NCBI RefSeq assembly: GCF_024349685.1 | Contig: NZ_AP025944.1 | Coordinates: 874,001 to 938,000 of the forward strand | DNA length: 64,000 nucleotides | From: Pseudomonas sp. LRP2-20 | GTDB taxonomy: Bacteria > Pseudomonadota > Gammaproteobacteria > Pseudomonadales > Pseudomonadaceae | Reading direction: 5' to 3' | Shown here: one piece after another, positions 4,485-53,702 of the stretch | How the letters are laid out: every line of letters begins with the position of its first letter | Numbering within the stretch: position 1 is the stretch's first letter | Position numbers and translations under genes: made by a program | Notes under the pieces: generated by a model | Seen by the model: the letters and a program-made list of their open reading frames with translations, nothing else | Database searches by the model: none | What the model was told of the DNA's origin: nothing

Positions 4485-5510
<1,026 letters not shown>

Positions 5511-5521
5511 TCAGGTAAACC

Positions 5522-5545
5522 TGTACAATGCACAATCTTTGTATA
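5522..5545. promoter_or_regulatory. Putative light-regulator operator 3 (TGTACA-N12-TGTATA)
   Basis: TGTACA and TGTATA are separated by exactly 12 bases in the divergent region between the FAD oxidoreductase (-) and the epimerase gene (+). Spacing and half-sites match operator 1. It may control one or both divergent genes. Confidence 0.7.
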
Positions 5546-5657
5546 AGGTTATTCCGCTTCATAGGCATGTGGCCTATGGTTATCCGAGAGCGATTGGTCT
5601 GGAAAAGTGCCTTGTTCTTAAAAATAGACCATGGCCGCACGCTGCGAGGACACAGCC

Positions 5658-6563
5658 ATGCATATATTGCTGACGGGTGGTACCGGTTTGATCGGCCAGC
5701 ACCTTTGCCAATACTGGCTAGGCAAGGGCCATCGGCTTACCGTGTGGAGCCGGCGCCCTGAACAAGTGCCTCGATTGTGTGGCAGCGAGGTGCGTGGCAT
5801 TGGCCGGCTGGAGGATCTGGGCGCTGATGAGTCGGTGGATGCGGTGGTCAATCTGGCCGGTGCGCCGATCGCCGATCGGCCTTGGTCGGCTTCGCGACGC
5901 AACCTGCTATGGGCCAGTCGCATTACCCTTACCGAACAACTGCTGGCCTGGCTGGGCAGCCGTGAGCAGCGCCCCGAGGTGCTGATTTCCGGTTCCGCCG
6001 TTGGCTGGTACGGCGATGGCGGCGAGCGTGAACTTACCGAAGCCTCGCCGCCGGTTCGCGAAGATTTCGCCAGCCAGTTGTGCATCGCCTGGGAAGAAAC
6101 CGCCCAGCGTGCGCAGCACCTTGGCATGCGCGTGGTGCTGGTACGTACCGGGTTGGTGCTGGCCAGTGACGGCGGCTTTTTGTCGCGCCTGCGCCTGCCG
6201 TTCAAGTTGGGACTGGGCGGGCCGTTGGGTGATGGCAGGCAGTGGATGCCGTGGGTACATATCGACGATCAGATCGCCCTGATAGATTTTCTCTTGCAGT
6301 ACAAGGATGCCAGCGGTCCTTATAATGCCTGCGCGCCAGAACCGGTACGTAACCGCGATTTCGCCAAGGCGCTGGGGCGTGCGCTGCATCGGCCGGCGTT
6401 CATGCCGATGCCCGGCCTGCTGCTCAAGGCGGGCCTCGGCGAGCTGTCGACCTTGCTGCTTGGTGGCCAGCGGGCGCGCCCGGTGCGCTTGCTGGCGGCG
6501 GGCTTCACCTTTCGTTTCAACGATCTGCAATCGGCCCTGGGCAACCTGTCCAGCCGCCTCTGA
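5658..6563 (+). CDS. TIGR01777 family NAD-dependent epimerase/dehydratase (YfcH-like)
   Basis: This 301-residue extended SDR has the N-terminal motif [20 protein letters not shown], the NLAGAPI segment and the SGSAVGWYG active-site region. A C-terminal DUF1731-type segment is visible ([19 protein letters not shown]...). Members are soluble and NAD(P)-binding, with unknown physiological substrate. I chose ATG at 5658 over an upstream in-frame start at 5631 because it begins the Rossmann strand and has GAGGA 8 bases upstream. It lies across a shared upstream region from the light-regulated FAD gene and is followed 13 bases later by hemH. Confidence 0.9.
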
Positions 6564-32921: not shown

Positions 32922-33167
32922 CAGCGCCTGTGAGATCGAGCGCCGCCCGCGCGGCGCATCGCGAGCTGCGCTCGCTCCTACGTTTGTTTCGGGCCAGTAA
33001 TGCCTGTGACAGGCGCGCGCGACCGCCTTGTTCGTACGACGCGATACCGAGTCAGGCGCCAAGGCGTTCGCGTGCAATCCCCCAGGAATATTTGGCCCGA
33101 AACAAACGTAGGAGCGAGCGCAGCTCGCGATGCGCCGCGCGGGCGGCGCTCGATATCTCAGGCGCTG
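32922..33167. repeat. Long palindromic repeat element, copy 1
   Basis: This is a ~246-bp element with ~60-bp almost perfect inverted arms. The left arm (32932-32995) contains gcgccgcccgcgcggcgcat, and the right arm (33094-33157) is its complement. A ~98-base centre separates them. A second copy with the same arms lies at 42292-42530. It fills most of the 340-bp gap between the kinase and MBL genes. Each arm is open in several frames, but these are not genes. Confidence 0.88.
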
Positions 33168-33227
33168 CATCTCCCAAGACAGACACCCCAGACCACGCTA
33201 ACATCCGGGCAGTAGTCAGGAGCCCCC

Positions 33228-39593: not shown

Positions 39594-40776
39594 CCGCCAG
39601 CGCGGCGCCAGCCGGCCGGGTGCTGGCTGGCGCCGTGTGGCAGGCGTTGAACAGGTGCGATTCGAACTGCTCGACGATCGCCGGCCAGCCTTGGCGGCTG
39701 GCATGCTGGCGGGCGTTGAGGCGGACCCGGCGCAGGGTCTCACTTTCTTCCAGCAGCCAGCAGGCGGCGTCGATGAACGCGCACTGGTCGCCAGGCATGG
39801 CCAGCGCGCCGCTGTGGCCATGGCGGATATGCTGGGCCGCGGCGGCTTCATCGTAGGCGACCACGGCCAGGCCCGAGGCCATGGCTTCGAGCACCACGTT
39901 GCCGAAGGTTTCAGTCAGGCTCGGGAACAGGAACAGATCGCCGCTGGCATAGTGCTCGGCCAGTACTTCGCCGCGCTGGGCGCCGCAGAACACTGCATCT
40001 GGCATCTGCTGCGCGAGCGCTGCCCGCTGCGGGCCATCACCCACCACCACCAGTCGGATGTGCCGCCCTGGATAGGCTTTCTGCAAGGCTTGCAGGCAGG
40101 GCTGCAACAGCGCCAGGTTCTTTTCCGCGGCCAGGCGCCCGACGTGCAGCACGGCGATGTCATCGGCGCCAAGCCCCCAGCTTTCGCGTAAGGCTCGGCT
40201 GCGCCGGGCCGGGTTGAACAGGCTGGCATCGACGCCTCGGGCCATCAAGGCCAGGCGCTCGAAACCGCGGCGTTCCAGCTCCAGGCGCTGGCTGACGCTG
40301 GGCACCAGGGTGGCGGCGGTGCGCCGATGGAACCAGCGCAGGTAATGGGTCAGCAGGCGTGCCAGCAGGCCGAGGCCGTATTGCCCGGAGTATTGCGGGA
40401 AATTGGTGTGAAAGCCGCTGACCACGGCAACCCCCAGGCGCCGCGCGGCGCGCAGGGCACTGAGGCCCAATGGCCCTTCGGTGGCGATGTACAGCACGTC
40501 CGGGCGCTGCCTGCGCCAGCGGCGCAACAGCTTGTGCATCGATACCTCGCCCCACTGCAGGCCGGGATAGCCGGGCAGTGCCCAGCCACGGCAGAGCAAC
40601 AGGCCTTGGTCTTCGTCCGCCGGTGCCTCGTTGGCCTGTCGTGGGCGAACGATCTCCACCTGATGGCCACGCTGTCGCAAACCTTCGCTGAGGCGGCCAA
40701 TGGTGTTGGCCACACCGTTTATCTCGGGTGGGAAGGTTTCGCTGACAAGCGAGATACGTAGGGCAGGTGTATTCAT
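39562..40776 (-). CDS. Family 4-type (GT-B) glycosyltransferase
   Basis: This 404-residue protein has a two-domain GT-B layout. The N-terminal domain starts LRISLVSETFPPEINGVANT and includes VVSGFHTNFPQYSG; the C-terminal nucleotide-sugar domain includes DIAVLHVGRLAAEKNLALL and FPSLTETFGNVVLEAMASG with the EX7E motif. It resembles glycosyltransferases of the alpha-mannosyl/glycolipid (MgtA-like) group, but donor and acceptor are unknown. It stands alone, with no polysaccharide genes around. Its promoter region is shared with the divergent BdlA-like chemoreceptor gene. Confidence 0.88.
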   Translation of the reverse strand: MNTPALRISLVSETFPPEINGVANTIGRLSEGLRQRGHQVEIVRPRQANEAPADEDQGLLLCRGWALPGYPGLQWGEVSMHKLLRRWRRQRPDVLYIATEGPLGLSALRAARRLGVAVVSGFHTNFPQYSGQYGLGLLARLLTHYLRWFHRRTAATLVPSVSQRLELERRGFERLALMARGVDASLFNPARRSRALRESWGLGADDIAVLHVGRLAAEKNLALLQPCLQALQKAYPGRHIRLVVVGDGPQRAALAQQMPDAVFCGAQRGEVLAEHYASGDLFLFPSLTETFGNVVLEAMASGLAVVAYDEAAAAQHIRHGHSGALAMPGDQCAFIDAACWLLEESETLRRVRLNARQHASRQGWPAIVEQFESHLFNACHTAPASTRPAGAALAVKPGSSTPRG

Positions 40777-40956
40777 GAGAAAAAAGTTTCCACCTGCTGC
40801 GTTGCGCTCACATGACAGTCTGGTGACGCGCAGGTGACGCCTGATTTCTGGCAGTTTCAGCGTTGTGAATATTTCTTTTCAGGGTGCTCAAGCGGCACGC
40901 GGCGCAGCCGATGAAGATGCATCCGAATCGGTTTGATGCGCTCCGGGAGTGCGGTG

Positions 40957-42273
40957 ATGTTCAACAGCAAGCTCAAGAAAGAAATCCAGCAACTGCGCGA
41001 AGAGCTGATGGCCATCGAGCAGGTCAAGAGCAGCCTCGACAGCGAGATGCTGGTGCTGCAGCTCGACCCCCAGGGGCGCATCGAGCAGGTCAACGGCAAT
41101 TTCGAGAGCGAGATGCTCTACCGCGCCGAGCAGCTGATTGGCCGCAACATCGAAGATATCGTGCCAGCGCACGTGAAGAAGCTCGATTTCTACCAGCGCA
41201 TGAAAAACGCCATCAGCCGTGGCGAGCACCTCAATGGCGCCTTCCGTCTGCTGCGCGGCAACGGCCAGGAAGCCTGGCTGCGCTCTATCCTGCAGCCGGT
41301 GAAGAGCGCTGATGGCCGTATCAGGCATTTCTCCATGCACTCCAGCGACCTGACCCGCACCATCGAAGCGTCCCGTGAGCACGAGAGTCTGATCAAGGCA
41401 CTGATGCGTTCCACCGCCGTGATCGAGTTCAACCTCGACGGCGAGGTGCTTACCGCCAACGACCGCTTCCTGCAGACGGTGGGCTACAGCCTGGAACAGG
41501 TGCGTGGCAAGCATCACCGCCTGTTCTGCGAACCTGAGGAAGCCAACTCGGCGGGTTACCAGGCCTTCTGGGACAAGCTGCGCCGTGGCGAGTACGTGGC
41601 CGACCGTTTCAAGCGGATCGATGCCCATGGCCGCACGATCTGGCTGGAGGCTTCCTACAACCCGATCTTCGATGCCCATGACGTGCTGTACAAGGTGGTC
41701 AAGTTCGCCACCGTGATCACTGAGCAGGTCAATCAGGAACAGGCCGTGGCGCAAGCCGCCGACATCGCCTACAACACCTCCCTGGAAACCGACAGCAGTG
41801 CCCGCAAGGCCACCGAAGTCGTGACCCAGACCGTGGACGTGATGCGCGGCCTGGAAGGGTCGATGCAGGACGCCGCCGAGGGTATCCAGGCACTGGACAA
41901 GCAGTCCAAGGTGATTGGCGCAATCATCAAGACCATCAGCGATATTGCCGGGCAGACCAACCTGCTGGCGCTCAACGCGGCCATCGAGGCCGCCCGTGCT
42001 GGTGAGCAGGGCCGTGGCTTCGCCGTGGTCGCTGACGAAGTGCGGCAGTTGGCCTCGCGTACCAGCAGTGCCACCGAGGAGATTGCCAAGGTGGTGCAGC
42101 AGAACGAACAGCTGGCCCAGGCGGCGGTGGACATCATCGATACCAGCAAGCGCCAGGCGGAGCAGGGGTTGGCGCTGGCGGCGGATACCGGTGGGGTGAT
42201 CGTCGAGATCCAGGAAGGGGCGAAGAAAGTGGTCGATGCGGTGGGGCAGTTTTCCAGCCAGTTGAGCCATTGA
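40957..42273 (+). CDS. BdlA-like soluble PAS-PAS chemoreceptor
   Basis: This 438-residue protein has two PAS domains (residues ~20-135 and ~145-255) followed by a short methyl-accepting signalling domain. The latter has the hairpin tip [20 protein letters not shown] and [19 protein letters not shown]. It has no membrane segment or HAMP domain, as in P. aeruginosa BdlA, which links c-di-GMP to biofilm dispersion. PAS ligands (heme, FAD or none) cannot be assigned. GGGAG lies 8 bases upstream of ATG 40957, preferred to an open extension from 40933. Confidence 0.9.
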
Positions 42274-42291
42274 TCATGGCTTGGGTTGTGT

Positions 42292-42530
42292 AGCGCCTGT
42301 GAGATTGAGCGCCGCCCGCGCGGCGCATCGCGAGCTGCGCTCGCTCCTACGTTTGTTTCGGGCCAGTAATGCCTGTGTCAGGCGCGCGCGACCGCTTTGT
42401 GGGTACGACGCAATATCGCGCCATGCGCCAAGGCGTTCGCGCGCAAATCCCCCAGGAATCATTGGCCCGAAACAAACGTAGGAGCGAGCGCAGCTCGCGA
42501 TGCGCCGCGCGGGCGGCGCTCGATCTCAAG
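42292..42530. repeat. Long palindromic repeat element, copy 2
   Basis: This is the second copy of the element at 32922-33167. The arms (42301-42361 and 42464-42527) are nearly identical to copy 1 and to each other's complement; the ~100-base centre has diverged by a number of substitutions. It starts 19 bases after the BdlA-like stop and runs straight into the toxin-domain frame. Confidence 0.88.
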
Positions 42531-43079
42531 GGCGGCAAATCCCTCCAGCCGTACCCCTCGCAGCAACACCCAATCCCGAACGTCCCCCAACCCCCGTTGC
42601 ATACGGTGCCGTGTTTCAAGGCGGACAATTTGCCAGCGTCGAAGCATGGCGAGTTTGAACGGCAGTTGAAAGGGCAGCAGGATGGATTGAACCGGCTCAC
42701 AGTTGAAGAATTTTTGGAGAATGTTGTAAATCCCAAGGAGCGTGATCCGAAGGTTGCGAGAAATGCAAGAAGGAAATTGTATGATGATCTGAGGAGAAGA
42801 GCTTATGACGAGCTATCTAAGGGTATGAGCCGAGTTGAAGCAAAAAAACTCTCAGCGAAACAGGCGAAGGAAACTATGTCCTCTCTTGCTGCGCTGCATA
42901 ATCCAGATTTAATCGCCGGTGGCAGGGATGTCATTGCGGACTTCGGGGATAGACAAGTAAATTCCACTATAGGTCCCCAGTGGAAAAGCAGGGTAGGCGA
43001 GCTAATACAATCAGTCAAAAAGCAGTCCAAAGAGGACGGTGTCTCAGGCTTTTTGAATGTTAGATTGCATAAGTGCTAA
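42369..43079 (+). CDS. Orphan Ntox15 (Tde1-type DNase) toxin domain, 5'-truncated
   Basis: From about 42594 the frame encodes a polymorphic-toxin tip: TVPCFKADNLPASKHGEFER, then GQQDGLNRLTVEEFLENV, and a final HNPDLIAGG (42897-42923). The last carries the HxxD motif of Ntox15 DNases such as Agrobacterium Tde1. The PAAR, Rhs or other delivery part expected upstream is missing. Instead the frame opens inside the palindromic element (first ATG 42369, also 42423), without a ribosome site. It is either a displaced orphan tip or a relic; the domain itself is intact to its stop. Composition is AT-richer than the neighbours, a sign of transfer. Confidence 0.75.
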   Translation: MPVSGARDRFVGTTQYRAMRQGVRAQIPQESLARNKRRSERSSRCAARAALDLKGGKSLQPYPSQQHPIPNVPQPPLHTVPCFKADNLPASKHGEFERQLKGQQDGLNRLTVEEFLENVVNPKERDPKVARNARRKLYDDLRRRAYDELSKGMSRVEAKKLSAKQAKETMSSLAALHNPDLIAGGRDVIADFGDRQVNSTIGPQWKSRVGELIQSVKKQSKEDGVSGFLNVRLHKC

Positions 43080-43098
43080 CAAACTGAGGAGCACAACA

Positions 43099-43716
43099 AT
43101 GGACGACGTTTACTCACTTTTCATAGAGGAAATGGGCGAGCCGGTGTTCAGGCAGGAGGTGCCTCCTTCTAGCATTGAGCGCTACAGAGGTAAGTTGCCG
43201 GAAAAACTTTTGGCGTACTGGGCCGAGCACGGCTGGTGCGGATATGGTGATGGGATATTTTGGACCGTCAATCCTCAAGATTACGAGGGCGTAGCTGCCT
43301 CATTCATAGAGGGCACTCCGCTAGAAGGGCGGGATACCTATCACATCATTGCCCGTGGCGCTTTTGGTGACCTTTATCTGTATGGTGAGAATTCCGGATT
43401 TTCATTAAATATCGTAGCCCATACTTCAAACTATTGCGGTTCGGCTGGTGAACTTGATGCGAATAATATGGATAAGGAGGTAGAGGGTTTCTTTCTTTTG
43501 ATGGAGCGAGAATCCAATGATTTTGGGGAGTTCTTTGCGCCTGCAAAGGAACGTTTAGGTGTCCTTGGGTGTGATGAGATGTACGGGTTTGTTCCTGCGC
43601 TGGCGTTTGGAGGATTAAGCAAGCTTGATAATCTTCAAAAGGTTAGTGCAGTAGAGCATTTGATACTGCTCTCTCAGTTGTCACCTCTTAAACCCTACAG
43701 CTTCTCCGATTTTTAA
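43099..43716 (+). CDS. GAD-like/DUF1851 immunity protein
   Basis: This 205-residue acidic protein has an N-terminal GAD-like domain (LFIEEMGEP through YWAEHGWCGYGDGIFWTVNP) and a C-terminal DUF1851 domain (ALAFGGLSKLDNLQKVSAVE). This is the domain pair of Tdi immunity proteins that neutralise Ntox15 DNases. It begins 19 bases after the toxin stop, with GAGGAG 7 bases upstream of the ATG. AT-rich codons match the toxin and differ from the flanking genes. It is complete and probably expressed, unlike the toxin whose start is in doubt. Confidence 0.85.
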   Translation: MDDVYSLFIEEMGEPVFRQEVPPSSIERYRGKLPEKLLAYWAEHGWCGYGDGIFWTVNPQDYEGVAASFIEGTPLEGRDTYHIIARGAFGDLYLYGENSGFSLNIVAHTSNYCGSAGELDANNMDKEVEGFFLLMERESNDFGEFFAPAKERLGVLGCDEMYGFVPALAFGGLSKLDNLQKVSAVEHLILLSQLSPLKPYSFSDF

Positions 43717-43732
43717 TAAAACACGCTGGGTA

Positions 43733-43753
43733 AAGGGCTGCCCGGCAGCCCTT
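43733..43753. terminator. Hairpin between immunity gene and cysZ
   Basis: The stem aagggctg-ccc... gcagccctt (aagggctgcccggcagccctt) is perfect but has no strong T-run. It sits between convergent genes and can act on both strands. Confidence 0.6.
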
Positions 43754-43760
43754 CGCTCAA

Positions 43761-44489
43761 TCAGTTCCGCTCGCGCACCCAGAACAACGTAGCCCCCGCC
43801 ACCGCCGCCGGCATCATCAGCACGTTGACGCCAGGAATCAGCAACGCCAGGTAGGTGATGCCGCCAAAGCCCAGCGACTGCCAGCGCTTGCTGCGCAACC
43901 AGGCAAGCATGTCCTGCCAGCTCATCTTGTTGTTGTCCGCCGGGTAGTCGATGTACTGGATGGCCATCATCCACACGCCGAAGATCAGCCACAACGGCGC
44001 GGCGACGACGTTGACCACGGGGATCAGCGACAGGATGAACAGGCCGATCGCCCGCGGCAGGAAGTAACCGAGCTTGCGCATCTCGCGGCCGAAGGTGCGC
44101 GGCACCATGGCCATCAACTCGCCCCAGCTGAATGCCGGGAACGGGTCTTCACCACGAACGACCACCTCGACCTTTTCCGCGAGAAAACCATTGAACGGCG
44201 CGGCGATGACGTTGGCCACCAGGGTGAAGGTGAAGAACACCATCAGCACCAGCAAGGCCACGAACAGTGGCCACAGAATGTAGGAAAGGAAGCTCAACCA
44301 GCTGGGCAGGGTCGGCATCAGCGCGTCGAGCCACAGGCTGAACTCGTGGCCGGCGAAGTAGATCAGGCCGCCGAACAGCAGCAGGTTGATCGCCAGCGGC
44401 AACAGCACGAACATCCGCAGGTTGGGGCTCAGCACCAGTTTCAGGCCTTCGCGCAGGTACTGGGGGCCGGAGAGGACAGGGGCTTGCAT
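43761..44489 (-). CDS. cysZ: Sulfate transporter CysZ
   Basis: This 242-residue inner-membrane protein has several long hydrophobic segments ([20 protein letters not shown] near the N terminus and [20 protein letters not shown] in the middle) in the EI24/CysZ family pattern. CysZ takes up sulfate with high affinity for cysteine synthesis. Conserved segments [24 protein letters not shown] and [11 protein letters not shown] are present. It is divergent from trxB, an arrangement that may reflect shared redox/sulfur regulation, but no CysB site was identified. Confidence 0.92.
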
Positions 44490-45763
<1,274 letters not shown>

Positions 45764-52802: not shown

Positions 52803-52818
52803 GGCCGGCTCTTGAGTT

Positions 52819-52926
52819 GCCTGTATTGGCCCATTCGCGGGTGAACCCGCTCGCACAGAGACTGCGCAACACTCGGTCTCTGTGCAATACCTGCGGGAGC
52901 GGGTTCACCCGCGAAGAGGCCGGTAC
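52819..52926. repeat. Inverted pair of REP elements
   Basis: Two facing REP cores (gcctgtattggcccattcgc and its complement gcgaagaggccggtac) surround a spacer that itself contains the hairpin gcacagagac/gtctctgtgc. It separates the convergent chemoreceptor and TatD genes. Confidence 0.85.
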
Positions 52927-53702
52927 TACCAGCCAAACAGCTCACAGGCATTGCGACTGCTGGCCTCAGCCAGTGTTTCAGGCTCAATGCCCATCAGCTC
53001 GGCCAACGCCTCGGCAATCTCCGGCAGATGTTCCGGGCTGTTGCGCTCGCCGGCATACATCGCCGGGGCCATGTCCGGCGAATCGGTCTCCAGCACGATG
53101 CTCTCCAGCGGCAGGCGCGGGAGGGTCTTGCGCAGGCGTAGCGCCTGCGGCCAGGTCGCTGCGCCACCCAGGCCAAGCCGAAAGCCCAGCTTGATGTACT
53201 CGCGCGCCTCTTCGTAACTGCCGGCAAAGGCATGGATCACCCCCGCGCGCGCCGGCTTGTAGCGCTTGAGCGTGGCAATCACCTGGGCATGGCTGCGACG
53301 CACATGCAACAGGGCAGGCAGCCCGAAGTCACAGGCCATCTGCAACTGGGCCTCGAACAGCGTCTGCTGGCGTTGCTTGTCCAGTGCTTCGAGGTAGTAG
53401 TCCAGGCCGAACTCGCCGACTGCGCACAGCCGTGGGTCGCCGTGCAGGCGCTCCAGCCATTCGCGCAGCTGCGTCAAGTGCTCCGGCCGGTGCTGCTCCA
53501 GGTAGATCGGGTGCAGCCCCAGTGCCGCATGCACGCTGCGTTGCGCGCAGGCCAGGTCCCACACCCGCTGGAAATTCGCCTGGTACACCCCCAGCACCAC
53601 CATGCGCTCCACCCCGCGCGCCGCCGCGTTGGCCAGCAGGCGCGGGCGGTCGGCATCGAAGTCGGGGAAGTCCAGGTGCGTGTGGGTGTCGATCAGGCGC
53701 AT
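52926..53702 (-). CDS. TatD-family metal-dependent hydrolase
   Basis: This 258-residue TIM-barrel protein has the metal motif IDTHTHLDF at residues 4-12 and the further ligands AVGEFGLDYY and PALLHVRRSH. The final Asp is in LETDSPDM. Family members are 3'-5' DNases/metallophosphoesterases. This copy resembles the YjjV/YcfH branches. It follows fruR on the minus strand with a two-base gap, so it is likely co-transcribed, although no functional link with fructose is known. Confidence 0.92.
   Translation of the reverse strand: MRLIDTHTHLDFPDFDADRPRLLANAAARGVERMVVLGVYQANFQRVWDLACAQRSVHAALGLHPIYLEQHRPEHLTQLREWLERLHGDPRLCAVGEFGLDYYLEALDKQRQQTLFEAQLQMACDFGLPALLHVRRSHAQVIATLKRYKPARAGVIHAFAGSYEEAREYIKLGFRLGLGGAATWPQALRLRKTLPRLPLESIVLETDSPDMAPAMYAGERNSPEHLPEIAEALAELMGIEPETLAEASSRNACELFGW

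What the first reader, a model, noticed from the sequence alone, without database searches (positions are those of the whole stretch)
42292..43716. Orphan Ntox15 DNase toxin tip with its immunity gene, directly abutting a palindromic element
An AT-rich cassette between a BdlA-like receptor and cysZ encodes an Ntox15 domain with HxxD (HNPD, 42897) and a GAD-like/DUF1851 immunity protein 19 bases later. The toxin has no PAAR, Rhs, Hcp or other delivery part and no plausible ribosome site. Its frame emerges from the right half of a ~240-bp palindrome whose other copy is 9 kb away. This looks like a toxin tip plus immunity pair that was displaced from a T6SS effector locus, with the palindrome possibly marking the junction. 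The immunity gene is intact, so it may protect the strain against toxins of relatives.
Basis: partly seen in the sequence, partly recalled or inferred. Interest (0 to 1): 0.72.

Follow-up and report, generated by a model that had tools for sequence, protein, structure and literature searches.

The report
Toxin gene beheaded, antidote kept
A Pseudomonas strain has lost the front two thirds of an antibacterial DNA-cutting weapon gene at its original place in the chromosome but kept the matching antidote gene whole, which may still shield it from relatives that carry the complete weapon; this is a known kind of event, seen here very clearly.

Summary
The parts are as described: an Ntox15 DNase domain (HNPD at 42897), 19 bases later an intact Tdi-type immunity gene, and a large palindrome upstream. 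The reading "displaced toxin tip, palindrome at the junction" is wrong. The nearest relative found, Pseudomonas sp. R28(2017), has a complete 448-residue DUF6861–Ntox15 effector plus immunity gene at the same bdlA–cysZ site. The window lacks 957 bp of that locus: ribosome site, start codon, codons 1–287. The gene was truncated in place. Between palindrome and break lie 58 bp of the effector's own upstream flank, so the palindrome is not the junction; it is a REP-pair (REPIN-like) element whose core occurs 247 times in the genome. The genome has one complete and one frameshifted paralogue and five immunity loci. On the window branch the immunity gene shows 11 synonymous and 0 amino-acid changes, the tip 10 and 3; these do not differ significantly. 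Best reading: a disarmed T6SS-type DNase effector whose immunity gene survives as orphan immunity. Protection, expression and T6SS delivery are untested, and plain recent decay remains a serious rival. The kind is known (Vibrio immunity arrays, Bacteroidales orphan Tdi). Most interesting by-product: effector N-halves and toxin tips re-assort between loci.

The parts
40933..42273 (+). bdlA-like receptor gene (PAS-PAS-MCP), left neighbour; conserved flank
42292..42534 (.). Large REP-pair palindrome (REPIN-like); R28 has a 36-bp hairpin here instead
42535..42592 (+). Remnant of the effector's 5' flank; 98% identical to own locus B and 93% to own locus C (over 53-54 bp), where it ends about 100 bp upstream of the effector start codon
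42592..42594 (.). Deletion junction: 957 bp of the R28 locus (its 5044-6000) absent
42594..43079 (+). Ntox15 DNase tip (161 codons, open frame, no convincing start signal of its own)
42897..42908 (+). HNPD = HxxD catalytic motif
   Evidence: role of the motif from PMC4096383 and PMC10470768 (passages)
43086..43091 (+). GAGGAG, ribosome-site-like sequence of the immunity gene
43099..43716 (+). tdi-type immunity gene, 205 aa, intact (GAD-like + T6SS_Tdi1_C)
43761..44489 (-). cysZ (EI24/CysZ family), right neighbour
32923..33187 (.). Second palindrome copy in the window, not part of the effector locus

Best explanation
An ancestral DUF6861-Ntox15 DNase effector gene with its immunity gene stood between bdlA and cysZ. 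In this lineage a deletion, 957 bp relative to R28, removed the ribosome site, start codon and the whole N-terminal half, so the effector can no longer be made as a deliverable protein. The immunity gene kept its own ribosome-site-like sequence and its reading frame, and most likely persists as orphan immunity against kin that still carry the complete effector. Shown by sequence: in-place truncation, intact immunity gene, conserved catalytic core. Inferred: delivery of the parent by T6SS, expression of the immunity gene today, and protection.
For: R28 (L107) aligns at 40001-42326 (94.7%), 42502-42592 (95.7%) and 42594-45761 (97.5%) and has the complete gene between; Pfam gives DUF6861 6.3e-62 plus Ntox15 1.6e-29 for it. 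Complete genes at the same site also in L108, L066, L067. Own genome: 2 DUF6861 loci, none at the window site, 5 Tdi1_C loci, 2 VipB (T6SS sheath) loci. Immunity gene on the window branch 11 synonymous, 0 nonsynonymous (neutral P between 5e-8 and 7e-7). Of 15 evaluable broken or N-less effector copies, 11 keep an intact adjacent immunity gene; of 46 evaluable full-length copies, 46 do (my count from the table; intact = one open frame covering at least 190 of 207 profile positions, start codons not checked). Expressing tdi without tde was enough to protect a target strain of Agrobacterium (PMC4096383, passage); orphan Tdi proteins 61-65% identical to Tdi1 protect in Bacteroidales (PMC10470768, passages).
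Against: The tip too is constrained on this branch (10 synonymous, 3 nonsynonymous; P 4e-5 to 4e-4), so most of the branch may predate the deletion, and the constraint on the immunity gene may too; tip and immunity gene do not differ (Fisher 0.22). No promoter-like site in 42200-43200, but none in the R28 stretch either, so the scan is uninformative. At this same site G077 and G311 have lost both toxin and immunity, so retention is not general. In my searches only one genome shows this deletion.
Confidence: 0.62

Rival explanations
1. Plain decay: the deletion is recent and both tip and immunity gene are leftovers that have not yet had time to break; the immunity gene protects against nothing relevant.
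For: Tip and immunity gene are both still constrained on the branch and do not differ; at the same site G077 and G311 have lost both.
Against: 11 of 15 broken effector copies in the genus sample keep intact immunity genes; own locus B repeats the pattern, frameshifted effector with intact immunity gene.
Confidence: 0.25
2. Two-step displacement in place: a new tip-immunity module entered between the N-half and this tip, as modelled for Vibrio, and the new module with the N-half was lost later.
For: The break lies at the N-half/tip boundary; a complete effector followed by orphan tips and immunity genes exists in L142 and L144; model in PMC5361080 (section 13).
Against: No remnant of another module; apart from the palindrome core, everything left and right of the break aligns with R28, so one deletion suffices.
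Confidence: 0.07
3. Displaced orphan tip: tip and immunity gene were moved here from a T6SS effector locus elsewhere, with the palindrome at the junction.
For: No delivery part; palindrome nearby.
Against: Complete effector at the same site in four genomes; 58 bp of effector flank lie between palindrome and break.
Confidence: 0.02
4. Stand-alone intracellular nuclease with antidote, toxin-antitoxin-like, translated from an internal start such as TTG 42630.
For: Catalytic core conserved; AF2 model pLDDT 87.9 matches 8fzy; tip constrained; other short predicted Ntox15 proteins exist, not examined.
Against: No convincing ribosome site; no second genome with this near-identical short form among the listed hits.
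Confidence: 0.03
5. Assembly artefact next to a long palindrome.
For: Long palindromes can trouble assembly (general knowledge).
Against: Single-contig genome of 6,034,532 bases, completeness 100; the break is 58 bp outside the palindrome. Reads were not available.
Confidence: 0.01

Closest known systems
Tde1/Tdi1, Agrobacterium T6SS DNase effector and immunity protein (PF15604; GAD-like + PF08906)
   Same: Ntox15 domain with HxxD, immunity gene directly downstream (PMC4096383 passages)
   Different: Here the N-terminal half is gone; the parents carry DUF6861, whereas Tde1 has a short N-terminus with glycine-zipper repeats (PMC10240207 passages)
Orphan Tdi genes of Bacteroidales (PMC10470768, passages)
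   Same: Tdi homologue without a working partner toxin
   Different: Here it sits at its native place behind the truncated effector, not in an acquired immunity array
Orphan immunity genes of Vibrio cholerae T6SS clusters (PMC5361080, abstract and section 13)
   Same: Effector lost, immunity gene retained
   Different: There a new effector displaces the old; here a simple deletion fits
Orphan Rhs toxin fragment of Salmonella (PMC3967940, abstract)
   Same: Toxin fragment without translation start or export part, linked to an intact immunity gene
   Different: There the fragment lies downstream of the main gene; here there is no main gene in cis
REPIN (REP doublet forming a hairpin, PMC3116915 passages)
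   Same: Two inverted REP units, hairpin, high copy number
   Different: Here outer arms extend beyond the REP units; no REP was found beside the only Y1 transposase hit

Membership tests
Ntox15 domain (PF15604) | Profile match over the curated cut-off | tested here: met
   103.6 bits against cut-off 22.5, profile 5-152/153
Ntox15 domain (PF15604) | HxxD catalytic motif and conserved core | tested here: met
   HNPD; 16 columns, the motif included, are the same in all 29 aligned sequences, window included
Ntox15 domain (PF15604) | Fold of a solved Ntox15 domain | tested here: met
   AF2 model matches four chains of 8fzy, TMq 0.67-0.77
Working Tde-type T6SS effector | N-terminal delivery half (DUF6861 in the parents) | tested here: not met
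   Absent at the window site, present in R28 and at two other loci of this genome
Working Tde-type T6SS effector | Own translation start | tested here: not met
   R28's ribosome-like site and ATG lie in the missing 957 bp; only weak signals remain in the window; translation itself not tested
Working Tde-type T6SS effector | Secretion by T6SS | not testable with these tools
   T6SS sheath genes exist in the genome; no paper in the held library contains the term DUF6861
Tdi immunity protein | GAD-like plus Tdi1 C-terminal domain | tested here: met
   8g0k_B, 8fzz_B and 6itw_A matched
Tdi immunity protein | Neutralises the cognate DNase | not testable with these tools
   needs an assay
Displaced orphan toxin tip | Lies away from its native locus or downstream of a main gene | tested here: not met
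   Complete effector at the same locus in four genomes; no main gene in cis
Orphan immunity gene | Intact immunity gene without a working cognate effector in the genome | tested here: met
   Gene intact; the two other Ntox15 tips of the genome are only about 56% identical in DNA; cross-protection not testable
REPIN | Inverted REP pair forming a hairpin, many copies | tested here: met
REPIN | REP next to a cognate Y1 transposase | tested here: inconclusive
   One Y1_Tnp locus, no exact GTAGGAGC within its 3.3 kb; other transposase types not searched

The most novel reading that the evidence does not exclude
The tde-tdi loci of these pseudomonads form a scattered cassette family in which a near-constant 5' block (REP hairpin or palindrome, about 160 bp of flank, DUF6861 half) is exchanged between loci while tips and immunity genes stay and diverge; the palindrome next to the 5' block acts as anchor or breakage point, producing both tip swaps and beheaded effectors with surviving immunity genes.
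Probability: 0.15. Interest if true: 0.5.

Novelty: new member of a known kind. Interest (0 to 1): 0.3.

Why it matters
It gives a clean before-and-after pair (R28 and this strain) for the loss of an antibacterial effector with retention of its immunity gene, in which protection could be tested directly. It also corrects a tempting reading (displaced tip, palindrome as junction) and points to exchange of a constant N-terminal half between unlinked effector loci.

Tried and rejected
Displaced-tip reading: rejected by the R28, CC120222-01a, G145 and G057 loci. Palindrome as junction: rejected. Palindrome as a known RNA: the only Rfam match in 41800-44000 (MIR6297, 39.4 bits against a gathering score of 114) is taken as a hairpin look-alike. 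Y1 transposase as source of the palindrome: one gene, no exact REP head beside it. Promoter scans: no site in the window or R28 stretch, uninformative. NCBIfam: no toxin model near its cut-off; a TaeI-family immunity model matches the immunity protein at 148 bits, far below its cut-off of 450. Selection cannot date the deletion. Microhomology at the junction: at most about 2-3 bases, with one or two C not assignable (read by eye), so no repeat-mediated mechanism is claimed. Papers seen: passages of PMC10470768, PMC4096383, PMC10240207, PMC8546570 and PMC3116915; abstract, start of the introduction and section 13 of PMC5361080; abstract of PMC3967940; all others only in search listings. DUF6861 gave no paper in the held library.

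Full report
Observation. The frame at 42594-43079 is an Ntox15 domain (E 1.4e-29 for the 236-aa frame, profile 5-152 of 153) and the gene at 43099-43716 is GAD-like plus T6SS_Tdi1_C. Solved relatives are entries 8fzz, 8g0k and 8fzy (Ntox15 domains and DUF1851 partners) and 6itw, Agrobacterium Atu4351. HNPD stands at 42897; the two genes are 19 bases apart. Sixteen columns, the motif included, are the same in all 29 sequences of an alignment that contains the window, and an AF2 model of the tip (pLDDT 87.9, pTM 0.78) matches four chains of the Ntox15 structure 8fzy with E from 4.2e-08 to 1.7e-07. No strong ribosome site precedes any of the three candidate starts looked at, while the immunity gene has GAGGAG seven bases before its ATG.

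In-place truncation. A scan of one-genome-per-species contigs gave 16 loci that encode relatives. The nearest, Pseudomonas sp. R28(2017) (L107), aligns with the window at 40001-42326 (94.7%), 42502-42592 (95.7%) and 42594-45761 (97.5%). Between the last two blocks R28 has 957 bp more (its 5044-6000): 96 bp of upstream sequence with an AGGGAGA ribosome-like site, the start codon and codons 1-287 of a 448-aa protein. Pfam, given 447 of its residues, finds DUF6861 (6.3e-62) and Ntox15 (1.6e-29). The window therefore has the upstream flank of the effector up to 42592, joined to the tip at 42594. Complete effector and immunity genes stand at the same site in Pseudomonas sp. CC120222-01a (L108), G145 (L066) and G057 (L067).

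The site in relatives. One search found cysZ in 397 of 398 genus genomes (own included) and returned loci for the own and the 29 best other genomes. In those 29 the bdlA-cysZ interval holds a complete effector in 2 (G145, G057), a decayed one in 2 (G077, G311), no trace at tblastn E 1e-4 in 24 (23 with 31 to 1010 bp, G364 with 4706 bp) and could not be bounded in 1 (G308). G077 and G311 lost both toxin and immunity gene here, which speaks against a general retention of immunity. P. vlassakiae (L109) has the tip at 89% beside cysZ, but its contig ends there.

The rest of the genome. Ntox15 occurs at three places: the window (A), 1638925- (B) and 1833271- (C). B has its N-terminal and tip parts in different frames and an intact immunity gene. 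C is complete, 448 aa, followed by three immunity genes of which the middle one is broken. DUF6861 is found only at B and C. Two T6SS sheath (VipB) loci are present. So one of three effector genes is whole, while A and B keep intact immunity genes.

Palindrome. It is a pair of inverted REP units with outer arms. 41 places, its own included, were aligned in the genome with only 40 of 162 candidates scored, so this is a lower bound. The REP core occurs 247 times with up to 2 mismatches, backwards control 0. The list of that call is cut; in its part up to position 1,640,828, where both strands are shown, I count 34 minus/plus pairs about 150 bp apart and 4 singles. This suggests about 120 palindromes (inference). 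R28 carries a 36-bp hairpin instead, so the palindrome core and the deletion are two separate differences. The 53-54 bp that follow the palindrome in the window are 98% and 93% identical to the sequence between palindrome and effector start at B and C. All three effector loci of this genome thus have the element and this flank upstream. Because the flanks are homologous, the three cases are not independent.

Selection. With CC120222-01a and P. vlassakiae as outgroups, the window branch has 10 synonymous and 3 nonsynonymous changes in the tip, and 11 and 0 in the immunity gene; the R28 branch has 4 and 0, and 5 and 2; 1 change in the tip and 3 in the immunity gene could not be assigned. Both window values depart from neutrality (tip P 4e-5 to 4e-4; immunity gene 5e-8 to 7e-7) but do not differ from each other (Fisher 0.22). 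This fits a recent deletion and does not prove selection on the immunity gene after it.

Genus sample. 45 of 398 genus genomes have a tip match. I examined 61 loci from these genomes; one hit at a contig end (G195 C11) was not fetched, and L160 gave no hit. By my count from the table (for L076 together), 15 broken or N-less effector copies could be judged: 11 have an intact adjacent immunity gene (own A and B, L139, L140, L141, two in L142, L143, L144, L146, L148) and 4 do not (L069, two in L145, L076). Full-length copies, including four more distant ones (L156-L159) and five ends of giant frames (L161-L165), number 47; 46 of 46 evaluable have an intact immunity gene (L042 is cut). Intact means one open frame covering at least 190 of the 207 profile positions; start codons were not checked. 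Left out: L147 and L166 (contig start) and a fragment in L055 (end of the locus). Some frameshifts in draft genomes may be sequencing errors.

Short forms elsewhere. The protein search (120 listed of 132; lengths limited to about 130-413 aa, so full-length parents are outside it) lists the near-identical 149-aa protein only for this genome. It also lists many short Ntox15 proteins (130-237 aa, 42-80% identical), some on large contigs; I did not examine them, and some may be further truncated copies or start-prediction variants.

Mosaic. In the N-half, R28's gene at A is closer to this genome's C (94.5%) and B (93.1%) than to its own-site counterpart in CC120222-01a (89.6%); in the tip it is 89.4% identical to CC120222-01a and 56% to B and C (sliding view). 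The replaced half may be that of CC120222-01a, which is 93.0% identical to a copy of MN1F (L112) with a different tip. Either way, constant halves and tips have different histories, as in other polymorphic toxins.

Literature. Tde DNase activity through HxxD and protection by tdi alone are shown in PMC4096383 (passages); orphan Tdi proteins that protect are in PMC10470768 (passages); effector loss with immunity retention is modelled in PMC5361080 (section 13); a toxin fragment without start signals but with a working immunity gene is in PMC3967940 (abstract). The glycine-zipper role of the Tde1 N-terminus is in PMC10240207 (passages). That DUF6861 plays the same role is my inference from its Gly-rich stretch; no paper in the held library contains that name.

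Verdict. In-place truncation: about 0.95. A still useful orphan immunity gene: about 0.6. A known kind of event, well resolved here.

Noticed in passing
L107 5140-6483, L108 5140-6483, L064 8917-10256, L065 7263-8606: N-halves of some effector genes are more alike between unlinked loci than between the same locus of two species, while the tips behave the opposite way: exchange of the constant half.
   Followed up: partly
window 42292-42534 and 32923-33187; genome-wide: REP-pair palindrome family: 41 places aligned (lower bound), 247 REP cores; no exact REP head beside the only Y1 transposase hit.
   Followed up: partly
L107 4943-4978 against window 42292-42534: R28 has a compact 36-bp hairpin where the window has the full palindrome; by eye an 18-bp self-complementary stretch stands once in R28 and twice, in two variants, in the window, so the core may have been inserted, or lost between repeats.
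   Followed up: no
L142, L144, L147: Complete effector followed by orphan tips and further immunity genes (L142, L144); tip cut by a contig start followed by four immunity genes (L147).
   Followed up: partly
L108 3809-4829: Two extra reverse-strand ORFs (168 and 167 aa) without Pfam match at E 0.01 between bdlA and the complete effector in CC120222-01a.
   Followed up: no
L161-L165: Ntox15 tips in giant open frames of 2718-3134 aa in five genomes, each followed by an immunity gene.
   Followed up: no
window 52808-52941: Another inverted repeat, 61-nt arms, 72% complementary.
   Followed up: no
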